From an uncultured Pseudokineococcus sp. (GTDB taxonomy: Bacteria > Actinomycetota > Actinomycetes > Actinomycetales > Quadrisphaeraceae): a stretch of DNA of 64,000 nucleotides. The position numbers and the translations under genes were made by a program. Shown in pieces: positions 54,033 to 57,926 of the stretch (positions within the stretch are counted from its first letter, which is position 1; every line of letters starts with the position of its first letter). The notes beneath the pieces were generated by a model that searched no databases, was not told the DNA's origin, and saw nothing but the letters and a program-made list of their open reading frames with translations. The stretch covers positions 1 through 64,000 of the forward strand of contig NZ_CANMAA010000015.1 in the NCBI RefSeq assembly GCF_947495735.1, written 5' to 3'.

Positions 54033-54113
54033 CGGCGTGTCGGGAGGGGGTCTGGCCCCCTCTATCGTCGACGACATGGCCACCAGCCGAACGCATCACC
54101 GTCCGACGCCGTC

Positions 54114-54701
54114 GTGAGCACCACACCCGGCACCTACCGGATCACCGACGGCTCCGCCGTCCCGTTCCCCGACGCCGTCGACGCCTGGGCCCGCGCCGCA
54201 CCCAAGGTCCTCACGGACCGCGCCCGCACCTACGGCGCGACCATCGGCTACGGCGACCTCGCGCGCGCCCTGTTCGCCCGCTCGGGGATCGCCACCCGCT
54301 CCCTGCTGCAGAACTGGATCGGCGACGTCCTCGCCCGCGTCGCCGACATCTGCGCGGACCCCGCCAACGACTACCCCCCGCTGGACGCCCTGGTCATCCG
54401 CGAGGCCGACGGCAGCGTCGGCGGCGGCTACGCGGACGCCGTCGCCCGCACCACCGGCACCCGCCCCGCCGACCCCGAGCAGCACGCCGCCGAGGCACGC
54501 CTCGCGTGCTACCGGGCCCTGGCCCGCGACCTGCCCGCCGACGGCGGCCACGCCGTCCCCGCCGCCACCACCACCACCAAGGCTCCGGCCCGACGGCGCG
54601 CTGCTCCGGCGCCCGCGGCGCCGCCCCCTCCGCCCCCGCCGCTGTGCCCCACCTGCTACATGCAGCTGCCCAGCAGCGGGCAGTGCGACAACTGCGACTG
54701 A
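54114..54701 (+). CDS. Unknown protein with C-terminal CxxC...CxxC zinc ribbon
   Basis: A 195-residue protein. The N-terminal domain (residues about 20-150) is conserved-looking and helical: AWARAAPKVLTDRARTYGATIGYGDLARALFARSGI, NWIGDVLARVADIC, then PPLDALVIREADGSVGGGY and HAAEARLACYRALARDLP. A Pro/Ala linker leads to CPTCYMQLPSSGQCDNC, a small zinc ribbon. Similar domain pairs occur in other actinobacteria and may be nucleic-acid-binding or nuclease-like, but I cannot name the family. GTG start. A frameshifted second copy lies at 57062-57421. Confidence 0.6.
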   Translation: MSTTPGTYRITDGSAVPFPDAVDAWARAAPKVLTDRARTYGATIGYGDLARALFARSGIATRSLLQNWIGDVLARVADICADPANDYPPLDALVIREADGSVGGGYADAVARTTGTRPADPEQHAAEARLACYRALARDLPADGGHAVPAATTTTKAPARRRAAPAPAAPPPPPPPLCPTCYMQLPSSGQCDNCD

Positions 54702-54823
54702 TCCCCCCGGAGACCGTTCACAGCGAGCGGCGCTGGACCACCACCACCCTGCGGGGCGCCTCCTGGTGCGCGGCGATCGACGCCGTCGACGTCCTCGCCC
54801 TGCAGGGCCGGTAGCGCGGGGGC

Positions 54824-54875
54824 GGAGGTGGCAGCTCCTCGTCGCGCTCCACCGCGTCGAGAGGCGGCCACCTCC
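54824..54875. terminator. Terminator hairpin, copy C of the recurrent type
   Basis: A 23-bp stem with four mismatches (54824-54846 with 54853-54875) between convergent genes; left arm starts GGAGGTGGCAGCTCCTCGTC, sharing GTGGCAGC-N-CCTCGTCGCGCTC with copy A. Confidence 0.65.
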
Positions 54876-54912
54876 CGTGGCCGCCGGGCCGCGGCGAGAT
54901 GCCGCCGGGGGC

Positions 54913-55857
54913 TCACCCCGGCAGGACGACGACCTTGCCCGCGATCCGTCCCGCGGCGCCCTCGGCGTGCAGGGCCGGCAGGTCGGCGAGCGGGATGCGC
55001 CGGGTCACCTCGACCTGGAGGGCGCCGGCGTCGACGAGGCGCACGAGCTCCGCGAGACGGTCCCGGTCGGGCAGCACGAAGACCGTCGACGCCGTGACGC
55101 CGCGGGCCGCGTCGTCCGGCGTCGCCATGAACGCGGTCGTGCTGACGACCCGGCCGCCGTCACGGACGAGGGCCACCAGCGCGGCGAAGCGCTCCGGCTC
55201 CACGGGGGCGAGGTTGAGCAGGACGTCGACCGGCTCGTCCACCGCGACGAGGAGGTCCGTCGTCGTGCGGTCGACCACCTCGTCCGCGCCGGCGGCCACG
55301 ACGGCGTCGCGGCTGCGCGGGCTGGCGGTGGCGACGACGTGCACGCCGGCCCGCTTCGCCAGCGCGACGGCGTACTTGCCGACGACGCCCCCGGCGCCGT
55401 TGATGAGCACGCGCTGCCCGGAGACCAGCTCGCCGTCGTCGAAGAGCGCCTGCCACGCCGTCAGCGCCACCGAGGGCAGGGCGGCCGCGTCGGGCAGCGG
55501 GATGCTCGTGGGAGCCGCGACGAGCGCGTCCACCGGGGCGACGACGTGCTCGGCGGCCCCTCCGTCGCGCTCCATCGGCAGGAAGCCGACGACGGCGTCC
55601 CCCACCTGCCAGCCGCTCTCGCCGCCGCCGTCGGCGGGGCCGACGGCGGCGACCGTCCCGGACACGTCGTAGCCGGGCACGTGCGGCAGCTCGACGGGGA
55701 TGGGGAGGAAGCCGCCGCGCATGCCGTTGTCGGCGGCGTTGTACGCCGACGCCGACACCTTCACCAGGACCTGGCCGGGGCCGGGGACCGGCGTCTCGAC
55801 CTCCTCGGCCTGGAGGACCTCGGGCCCGCCGGTCTCGTGGAAGCGCATCGCCTTCAT
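54913..55857 (-). CDS. Zinc-type alcohol dehydrogenase / quinone-oxidoreductase family
   Basis: A 314-residue medium-chain reductase of the quinone-oxidoreductase group: MKAMRFHETGGPEVLQ, the substrate domain with DNGMRGG, GYDVSGTVAAVG, and the NAD(P) loop LINGAGGVVGKYAVALAKRAG. The catalytic-zinc ligands of classical alcohol dehydrogenases are absent, as in zeta-crystallin-like enzymes, so it probably reduces quinones or enones with NADPH. It is divergent from an MmyB-type regulator across 188 bp holding a direct repeat of CCCACCCTC sites, and so is likely controlled by it. Confidence 0.88.
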   Translation of the reverse strand: MKAMRFHETGGPEVLQAEEVETPVPGPGQVLVKVSASAYNAADNGMRGGFLPIPVELPHVPGYDVSGTVAAVGPADGGGESGWQVGDAVVGFLPMERDGGAAEHVVAPVDALVAAPTSIPLPDAAALPSVALTAWQALFDDGELVSGQRVLINGAGGVVGKYAVALAKRAGVHVVATASPRSRDAVVAAGADEVVDRTTTDLLVAVDEPVDVLLNLAPVEPERFAALVALVRDGGRVVSTTAFMATPDDAARGVTASTVFVLPDRDRLAELVRLVDAGALQVEVTRRIPLADLPALHAEGAAGRIAGKVVVLPG

Positions 55858-55910
55858 CGCTGTGCCTGCTCTCGTCGTGGGGTGGCGTGCCGACGGCTCG
55901 TCGGCGTGCA

Positions 55911-55979
55911 CCCACCCTCGCCGGGTGCGACGCCCCGTACCTGGGCCAGGCAGGCCCACCCTCACCGGGCGCGGACGCC
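55911..55979. repeat. Imperfect direct repeat in the regulator promoter region
   Basis: CCCACCCTCGCCGGGTGCG at 55911 and CCCACCCTCACCGGGCGCG at 55955 (44 bp apart, about four helix turns) lie between the divergent oxidoreductase and MmyB-type regulator. They are candidate tandem operators. Confidence 0.45.
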
Positions 55980-56045
55980 GCCCCGTCCGGGCGACGACGG
56001 CCGCGGCCCTTCCCGCCCGCGCGGACGCCGGTGCACACTCCCGGC

Positions 56046-56906
56046 GTGACCGGACGGGACTTCGGCGCCGCGGTGCGCCGGCTGCGGGAGGCCGCGGATC
56101 CCGTGGCCGCAGGGGTGCCACTCGGGGTCGGCAGCCGCCGGGTCCGGGGCCTGCGCCGCGAGGAGCTCGGGGAGCTCGCCGGGATGTCGGCGGACTACGT
56201 CCGGCGGCTGGAGCAGGGCCGCAGCCACCCGTCCGCCGCCGTCGTCGACGCGCTGGCCCGGGCGCTGCGCGCGGGCCGGGCGGACTACGAGCGCCTCTGC
56301 GCGCTGGCCGGGTACGCCGCCGTGGACGGCCGGGTGCCCTCCACCCTCGGCCCGGGCGCGACCCGGCTGCTCGAGCGGTTCTCCGACACCCCGATGTTCG
56401 TCGCCGACGCCGCGATGAACCTCCTCGCGGTGACAGGCCCCTTCCTCGCCCTCGACCACTGGGAGCGCACCGGGGACCGCTGGGAGTGGAACATCGCCTG
56501 GCGCCAGTTCTGCGCCCCCTTCGCGACCTTCCAGCAGTCCGCGGCCGACGCGACGGACCACGAGGCGATCCTCGCCGCCAGGCTCAAGGACGCGACGCTG
56601 CGCTACCCGACCGATCCGGCCCTCGCCACCCTGGTCGACGACATCCGCTCCCGCAGCAGGCTCTTCGACGGCCTCTGGCGCGAGCCGCGCCCCGTGGCGG
56701 CCTACGAGAGCGCCGCGACGTTCCTCCGCTCGGACGGCGAGCCCGTCACGCTCGTCGGCAACCTCCTCGCCATCCCCGGCGACGACCTGGCCGCGCTCGT
56801 GCTGACCGCCGCGCCGGGCTCGCGGGACGAGGTCCGGCTCGCCGAGGTGGTCGCCGCGGCCGGCGGGCCGGCGGTCGTCAGGATGGACCCGCCGCAGCTC
56901 GGCTGA
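56046..56906 (+). CDS. XRE-family regulator with MmyB-like domain
   Basis: A 286-residue regulator: the helix-turn-helix stretch GSRRVRGLRREELGELAGMSADYVRRLEQGR at residues about 28-58 followed by an MmyB-like PAS-type domain (SDTPMFVADAAMNLLAVTGPFLAL). Same family and architecture as 18696-19523, and likewise divergent from an oxidoreductase. GTG start with a weak CACACT hexamer 6 nt upstream. It probably represses or activates the quinone-oxidoreductase-like gene and itself through the direct repeat upstream. Confidence 0.9.
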   Translation: MTGRDFGAAVRRLREAADPVAAGVPLGVGSRRVRGLRREELGELAGMSADYVRRLEQGRSHPSAAVVDALARALRAGRADYERLCALAGYAAVDGRVPSTLGPGATRLLERFSDTPMFVADAAMNLLAVTGPFLALDHWERTGDRWEWNIAWRQFCAPFATFQQSAADATDHEAILAARLKDATLRYPTDPALATLVDDIRSRSRLFDGLWREPRPVAAYESAATFLRSDGEPVTLVGNLLAIPGDDLAALVLTAAPGSRDEVRLAEVVAAAGGPAVVRMDPPQLG

Positions 56907-57061
56907 CCCGTCGTCGGGCTGAGCCGGGCGTTGTCGTCACGAGCGGGTCTCCCTCCCTCGGCGACTCGACGACAGCCTCCCCGAGCGGCTCGCCGTGGCG
57001 GGCGTCCTGGTGTCGGCCGGTGGGTGCTCCTCGCCGCGGCTCACGGCGCTGAGAGAGCTGC

Positions 57062-57421
57062 GACGCCCTCGACGCCTGGGCACGCGCCGCGCCCAAGATC
57101 CTCACCGACCGCGCCCGCACCTACGGCGCGACCATCGGCTACGGCTACGGCGACCTCGCCCGCGCCCTGTCCGCCCGCTCCGGGATCGCCACCCGCTCCC
57201 CGCTGCACACCTGGATCGGCGACGTCCTCGCCCGCGTCGCCGACACCTGCGCCGACCCCGCGGGCGGCCACCCCCGCTGGACGCCCTGGTCATCCGCGAG
57301 GCCGACGGCACCGTCGACGGCGGCTACGCCGACGCCGTCTCCCGCACCACCGGCACCGCCGCTGTGCCCGACCTGCTGCACGCAGCTGCCCGGCAACGAG
57401 CAGTGCGACCACTGCGACTGA
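57062..57421 (+). pseudogene. Frameshifted, internally deleted copy of the zinc-ribbon protein gene
   Basis: Matches 54171-54701: the same AWARAAPKILTDRARTYGATIGYG start, then an extra GYG (6-bp insertion) and a one-base loss in a C run (five against six C) that shifts the frame after CADPAGGHP. About 170 bp around the linker is deleted, and the copy ends with the same CTQLPGNEQCDHCD in another frame. No start codon precedes it. A pseudogene from a duplication, now degrading. Confidence 0.75.
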
Positions 57422-57518: not shown

Positions 57519-57926
57519 GTGGCCGGACACCGCATCTTCGGCACGCCGTTCGCGAGCATCTACCCGCACTACGTCGCCAAGGTCGAGCGCAAGGGGCGCC
57601 GCCGCGAGGACGTCGACACGGTGGTCTGCTGGCTCACCGGCTACGACGCCGCCGGGCTCGAGCGGGCCCTGACCTCCGAGGTGGACCTCGAGACCTTCTT
57701 CGCGCAGGCGCCGGCGATGACGCCGCACGCCGCCGAGATCACCGGCCTCGTCTGCGGCGTGCGGGTCGAGGAGGTCGAGGACCCCCTCATGCAGAAGATC
57801 CGCTGGATGGACAAGCTCGTGGACGAGGTCGCCCGCGGCAAGCGGATGAGCTCGGTCCTGCGGGGCAGCGCCCCGGACGCGCTCGCGGCCACCGGCGACG
57901 TGGCGCCGCCTGCGAGCGCCTCGTGA
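57519..57926 (+). CDS. DUF2200-family protein
   Basis: A 135-residue protein with the DUF2200 pattern: GHRIFGTPFASIYPHYVAKVERKGR, VVCWLTGYDAAGLERAL, FFAQAPAMTPHAAEITGLVCGVRVEEVEDPLMQKIRWMDKLVDEVARGKRM. It is small and probably cytoplasmic; no function is established for the family. The GTG start has GGAGG 6 nt upstream. It follows the zinc-ribbon pseudogene by about 100 bp. Confidence 0.85.
   Translation: MAGHRIFGTPFASIYPHYVAKVERKGRRREDVDTVVCWLTGYDAAGLERALTSEVDLETFFAQAPAMTPHAAEITGLVCGVRVEEVEDPLMQKIRWMDKLVDEVARGKRMSSVLRGSAPDALAATGDVAPPASAS

What the first reader, a model, noticed from the sequence alone, without database searches (positions are those of the whole stretch)
54114..57421. Unknown zinc-ribbon gene and its decaying duplicate
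The 195-residue protein has a conserved-looking helical domain and a CxxC...CxxC ribbon but no family I can name. A second copy 2.9 kb downstream has near-identical stretches, a 6-bp insertion, a one-base loss in a C run and a 170-bp deletion. Between them lie an oxidoreductase and its regulator, so the duplication may have come with insertion of that pair.
Basis: partly seen in the sequence, partly recalled or inferred. Interest (0 to 1): 0.6.

Follow-up and report, generated by a model that had tools for sequence, protein, structure and literature searches.

The report
AGT-like domain gene with zinc tail
A small, patchily distributed actinobacterial gene appears to encode a distant, non-catalytic cousin of the DNA-binding half of DNA-repair alkyltransferases joined to a short zinc-binding tail, and the genome also carries two dead copies of it nearby; it matters because relatives of the same protein are fused to parts of restriction enzymes.

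Summary
An intact 195-codon gene (A, 54114-54701) and a damaged copy (B, 57053-57421) are 92% identical over 352 aligned bases. No Pfam, NCBIfam, PHROGs or PADLOC model matches the 195-aa protein. The suggestion that the oxidoreductase/regulator pair was inserted is contradicted: in two congeners the gene already lies downstream of that pair, so B sits at the ancestral place and A is the copy in a new place. B has no ordinary start codon, but its one-base loss and ~176-bp deletion cancel, so the zinc tail is back in frame. The "helical domain" folds confidently (pLDDT 96.5). Its best structural matches are the C-terminal DNA-binding domain of O6-alkylguanine-DNA alkyltransferases (AGT) and alkyltransferase-like proteins (ATL), Z up to 6.3; a profile comparison agrees (87%). 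The PCHRV/PWHRV motif is absent, so it is not an AGT or ATL. Relatives occur in roughly 6% of sampled Actinomycetes, on plasmids, and fused to the ScoMcrA head domain or a GIY-YIG nuclease; the CPTCF-LP-TG-CD-C tail is a shared C-terminal module. Best reading: a non-catalytic DNA-reader protein, probably defence-related. Function is inferred, not shown.

The parts
54063..54068 (+). TATCGT, -10-like element 7 nt before the ancestral ATG (leaderless-type start)
   Evidence: sequence; CTATCGTCG..ATGG..AGCC conserved with G001 and G003
54076..54117 (+). ancestral ATG, now out of frame: 13-codon upstream frame whose TGA overlaps the GTG of gene A
   Evidence: direct reading of sequence
54114..54701 (+). 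copy A: intact 195-aa protein, alkyltransferase-like domain + linker + zinc ribbon
54159..54563 (+). residues 16-150: domain resembling the AGT/ATL C-terminal DNA-binding domain
54645..54698 (+). residues 178-195: C-terminal CxxC-x9-CxxC ribbon
54913..55860 (-). zinc-dependent-type quinone/alcohol oxidoreductase (PF08240, PF13602); ancestral neighbour
56046..56906 (+). XRE/MmyB-type regulator (HTH_31 + MLTR_LBD); ancestral neighbour
57053..57421 (+). copy B: pseudogene at the ancestral place; no start codon, +6, -1, ~-176 bp, frame restored at the ribbon

Best explanation
Gene A encodes a stand-alone DNA-reader protein. Residues 16-150 adopt the fold of the C-terminal DNA-binding domain of O6-alkylguanine-DNA alkyltransferases and ATL proteins but lack the alkyl-accepting motif. 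A flexible Ala/Pro-rich linker connects it to a C-terminal four-cysteine zinc ribbon that also ends several unrelated actinobacterial proteins. The likely working is that the domain binds DNA non-catalytically and recognises damaged, flipped or modified bases, while the ribbon strengthens DNA binding or recruits a partner. In some relatives a DNA-degrading part is fused (GIY-YIG nuclease) or a modification-dependent restriction-enzyme module is attached (ScoMcrA head domain). The gene family turns over quickly: here one copy is intact and two are dead. Shown: the sequence anatomy, gene order, fusions, absence of the catalytic motif. Supported by prediction: the fold. Inferred: DNA binding, modified-base reading, zinc binding, any defence role.
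For: Structure model of the domain alone pLDDT 96.5, pTM 0.89; the top eight VIA-align rows are all AGT/ATL chains (human AGT 1eh7 Z 6.3, 84 aligned, 3.0 A; 1t38 Z 6.0; M. tuberculosis OGT Z 5.7; S. pombe Atl1 Z 4.9), spanning model 3-134, with the winged-helix DNA-binding domain of Rok tied with Atl1 at 4.9 and other unrelated rows from 4.3 down; the same family tops the list for the whole protein. Profile-profile comparison with 13 actinobacterial AGTs: 87% probability, score 36 against at most 20 in 40 column-shuffled controls, reversed control 0.08%. An ITYxELA motif lines up with the VSYxELA of AGTs. Fusions in relatives: ScoMcrA head domain (5zmm, E 3.8e-15; PADLOC mREase_IV); DUF7669+DUF6884+GIY-YIG_2 nuclease in one frame, DUF6884 matching a phage-defence candidate model in PADLOC. 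Patchy distribution, ~19 of 297 Actinomycetes genomes with near-full-length copies, and three plasmids, one beside a DNA adenine methylase.
Against: Z under 8 is in the range where chance similarity of small helical domains occurs; Foldseek itself gives no E below 0.001. The profile match covers only the first ~45 columns. No arginine finger at the start of the recognition helix and no Asn hinge are evident (reading of the alignment). No conserved neighbours in 29 loci, so no operon ties it to restriction or repair. The fusions concern relatives at ~40-50% identity, not this protein.
Confidence: 0.5

Rival explanations
1. The domain is a generic winged-helix/HTH (Rok- or TetR-like) and the protein is an ordinary small transcription regulator; the resemblance to AGT is only the shared HTH.
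For: Rok DNA-binding domain Z 4.9 and Foldseek probability 0.38-0.47; several TetR chains at Z 3-4.4.
Against: AGT/ATL rows outnumber and mostly outrank the rest, cover the whole domain, and have independent profile support; no conserved target gene next door.
Confidence: 0.25
2. The domain is a protein-protein adaptor: the near-invariant E-x-H-A-A-x-x-R-L-x-C-Y helix (R129, C132 invariant) is the working surface, and the ribbon docks to a cellular partner.
For: The most conserved stretch lies after the HTH, outside the AGT catalytic region; the same ribbon is appended to unrelated proteins.
Against: Fusions are to DNA-acting modules.
Confidence: 0.2
3. B and C are not dead but expressed, B as a short HTH-plus-ribbon protein.
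For: B's frame is open and restored at the ribbon; intact short proteins with the N-terminal half and ribbon exist in G151 and G192.
Against: No ATG/GTG/TTG in B's frame and no conserved 5' end; B's lineage changes fall 4/7/2 on codon positions 1/2/3 against 2/3/6 for A, a small sample; C has lost its start and has a stop at the conserved W68.
Confidence: 0.05

Closest known systems
O6-alkylguanine-DNA alkyltransferase (AGT/MGMT/Ogt, PF01035)
   Same: predicted fold of the C-terminal DNA-binding domain; (I/V)(T/S)Y-x-ELA element
   Different: no PCHRV active-site motif, no catalytic cysteine, a longer segment before the recognition helix, an extra conserved HAAxxRLxCY helix, C-terminal ribbon
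Alkyltransferase-like proteins (ATL; S. pombe Atl1, E. coli/Vibrio Atl)
   Same: non-catalytic version of the same fold, about 100 residues
   Different: no PWHRV motif, no clear arginine finger, far below family-level sequence similarity
ScoMcrA and other modification-dependent type IV restriction enzymes
   Same: relatives of this protein carry the ScoMcrA N-terminal head domain
   Different: no SBD, SRA or HNH domain; the window protein lacks the head domain
wH-GIY-YIG fusion endonucleases reading N6-methyladenine (PMC11037411)
   Same: a small winged-helix-type reader fused to a GIY-YIG nuclease, as in two relatives here
   Different: different reader domain; the window protein has no nuclease

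Membership tests
AGT/MGMT (PF01035) | PCHR(V/I)(V/I) with nucleophilic cysteine (PMC10779285) | tested here: not met
   corresponding segment reads P-x-L-x-A/S-L-V/C-V; no invariant Cys there; no PF01035 match
AGT/MGMT (PF01035) | fold of the C-terminal DNA-binding domain | tested here: inconclusive
   top structural rows all AGT/ATL, Z to 6.3 over 84 residues at 3.0 A, supported by profile comparison; favourable, but the Z is moderate and the model is a prediction
ATL proteins | PWHRV (Trp in place of Cys) | tested here: not met
   absent in all 23 aligned members
ATL proteins | HTH with arginine finger and tyrosine | tested here: inconclusive
   Tyr of ITY present in 16 of 23; an arginine at position 60 or 62 is common just before the recognition helix, but equivalence to R128 was not established
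Type IV modification-dependent restriction enzymes (ScoMcrA type) | nuclease domain plus modified-base reader | tested here: not met
   window protein has no nuclease domain
Zinc ribbon | two CxxC pairs binding zinc | tested here: inconclusive
   four cysteines conserved; zinc binding itself not testable here

The most novel reading that the evidence does not exclude
An undescribed family of non-catalytic, alkyltransferase-fold base readers, combined by shuffling with ScoMcrA head domains, GIY-YIG nucleases and a common C-terminal zinc tag, forming a distributed actinobacterial modified-DNA defence toolkit in which the tag recruits a shared partner.
Probability: 0.25. Interest if true: 0.7.

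Novelty: new variant of a known kind. Interest (0 to 1): 0.45.

Why it matters
If right, the alkyltransferase fold, so far known as a damage sensor, has a second life as a reader module shuffled among restriction-like proteins in Actinobacteria, and a short C-terminal zinc tail marks members of that set. Both ideas can be tested with one small protein.

Tried and rejected
Named family for the protein: Pfam, NCBIfam, PHROGs, PADLOC and PDB sequence searches gave nothing significant. Phage origin: no match in phage records or viral contigs. Conserved operon partner: all-against-all comparison of neighbours from 29 loci found none. Insertion of the oxidoreductase/regulator pair: contradicted by congeners. 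Enzymatic alkyl transfer: active-site motif absent. An early scan of the regulator used a wrong frame (56048) and missed its domains; corrected. The first alignment A1 held three rows on the wrong strand and was not used; A4 held one row out of frame and was replaced by A5. The papers searched held nothing on this family.

Full report
Observation. The 195-codon frame at 54114-54701 and the damaged copy downstream are real. The copies align at offsets 2891, 2897 (after a 6-bp tandem duplication of GGCTAC), 2896 (after loss of one C from a run of six) and 2720 (after a deletion of about 176 bp); 323 of 352 aligned bases agree, far beyond chance. Because -1 and -176 add up to a multiple of three, copy B is an open frame of 122 codons (57053-57421) in which about 29 codons in the middle are out of frame and the four ribbon cysteines are intact, but it holds no ATG, GTG or TTG and lacks the first 56 bases of the gene.

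Third copy. Searching the whole genome revealed copy C at contig position 72052-72579, outside the window. It is 86% identical to A and clearly dead: start lost, 39 bp missing across the ITYGDLA helix, a stop codon at the highly conserved W68, and a frameshift before the ribbon.

History. Three congeners have one intact copy each, 67-77% identical. In G001 and G003 the order is oxidoreductase, MmyB-type regulator, AsnC regulator, DUF2000 protein, zinc-ribbon gene. In the window, B follows the same regulator directly, and no DUF2000 homologue was found in the genome (that search carried no positive control). B is therefore most simply read as the copy at the ancestral place, truncated, and A as the copy that moved, taking along a start region (CTATCGTCG..ATGG) shared with the congeners. 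This contradicts the idea that the pair was inserted. A block duplication followed by deletions would give the same layout and is not excluded. In G002 the gene lies in another neighbourhood, so relocation is common. Lineage-specific changes fall mainly on codon positions 1 and 2 in B (4/7/2) and on position 3 in A (2/3/6); the numbers are small but fit loss of constraint in B.

Copy A's own start. The conserved ATG at 54076 is out of frame in A through a one-base loss; it reads 13 codons and stops at a TGA overlapping the GTG at 54114. Gene A must begin at that GTG, perhaps by reinitiation. The lost N-terminal stretch is a variable Ala/Pro-rich tail in congeners, so this need not inactivate the protein.

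Family. No library names the protein, nor does Pfam name any of 27 aligned members. A profile search of 297 Actinomycetes genomes found about 19 with near-full-length copies plus several broken or partial ones (G257 and G259 are split between frames). Three plasmids carry one, one next to a DNA adenine methylase. No phage record matched. Twenty-nine loci share no conserved neighbours.

Architectures. (i) domain + ribbon, as here; (ii) ScoMcrA head domain + domain + ribbon (L012, L027, L034, L035; the head domain of L012 was matched to 5zmm at E 3.8e-15, the others by eye); (iii) DUF7669 + DUF6884 + GIY-YIG_2 nuclease + domain + ribbon in a single frame in G163, with the GIY-YIG/domain junction also seen in G259, where no start codon lies at the junction, so it is a true fusion; (iv) domain alone in distant relatives (L056, L058, L099, L100); (v) ribbon on other N-terminal parts, including the ScoMcrA head alone (L016-L018, L059; L018 matched to 5zmm at E 4.6e-11) and unassigned domains (L055, L057, L060). 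The ribbon consensus CPTCFxQLPxTGxCDxC lies at the very C-terminus.

Fold. The resemblance of ITYxELA...DGxVGxGY to the alkyltransferase DNA-binding domain was noticed in the sequence before the structural search. The full-length model (pLDDT 91.3) and a domain-only model (pLDDT 96.5, pTM 0.89) both place AGT/ATL chains on top when Foldseek's candidates are realigned: human AGT Z 6.3 over 84 residues at 3.0 A. Foldseek itself gives no significant hit, and Z values of this size can arise by chance in helical domains. Independent support comes from a profile comparison with 13 AGT sequences: 87% probability, score 36, against a maximum of 20 in 40 shuffled controls, over the first part of the domain. 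The active-site motif that defines AGTs (PCHRV) and ATLs (PWHRV; PMC10779285) is absent from all members. So the protein may work like an ATL, but it is not a member of AGT or ATL by the tested features.

Mechanism. Most likely a DNA-binding reader without catalysis, whose zinc tail adds DNA or partner contacts. The fusions to a GIY-YIG nuclease and to the ScoMcrA head parallel the known winged-helix readers of N6-methyladenine fused to GIY-YIG and other nucleases (PMC11037411). This parallel is an inference; no binding or defence activity was or could be tested here.

Noticed in passing
54063-54117: Leaderless-type start region of copy A (TATCGT 7 nt before ATG 54076) with the ATG knocked out of frame; its 13-codon frame ends in a TGA overlapping the GTG start of the gene.
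   Followed up: partly
contig C15:72046-72582 (L020:8046-8582): Third, dead copy of the gene just downstream of a gene starting MPELVFPLDSSKPF (formamidase/acetamidase-like by eye, not tested).
   Followed up: yes
L106 and L110 (G151, G192): Intact short relatives that keep the first half of the domain and the ribbon but lack the second half, the same layout that damaged copy B happens to have.
   Followed up: no
L105, L111, L118 (G190, G101, G147): The same C-terminal CPTCF-LP-TG-CD-C ribbon on unrelated N-terminal domains with no Pfam match; a shared C-terminal zinc tag in Actinomycetes that seems unnamed.
   Followed up: partly
57519-57926: DUF2200 gene immediately downstream of copy B (E 5e-49).
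   Followed up: no
G198 and G236: Two divergent intact paralogues of the gene in one genome, so multiple copies are not peculiar to the window's genome.
   Followed up: no
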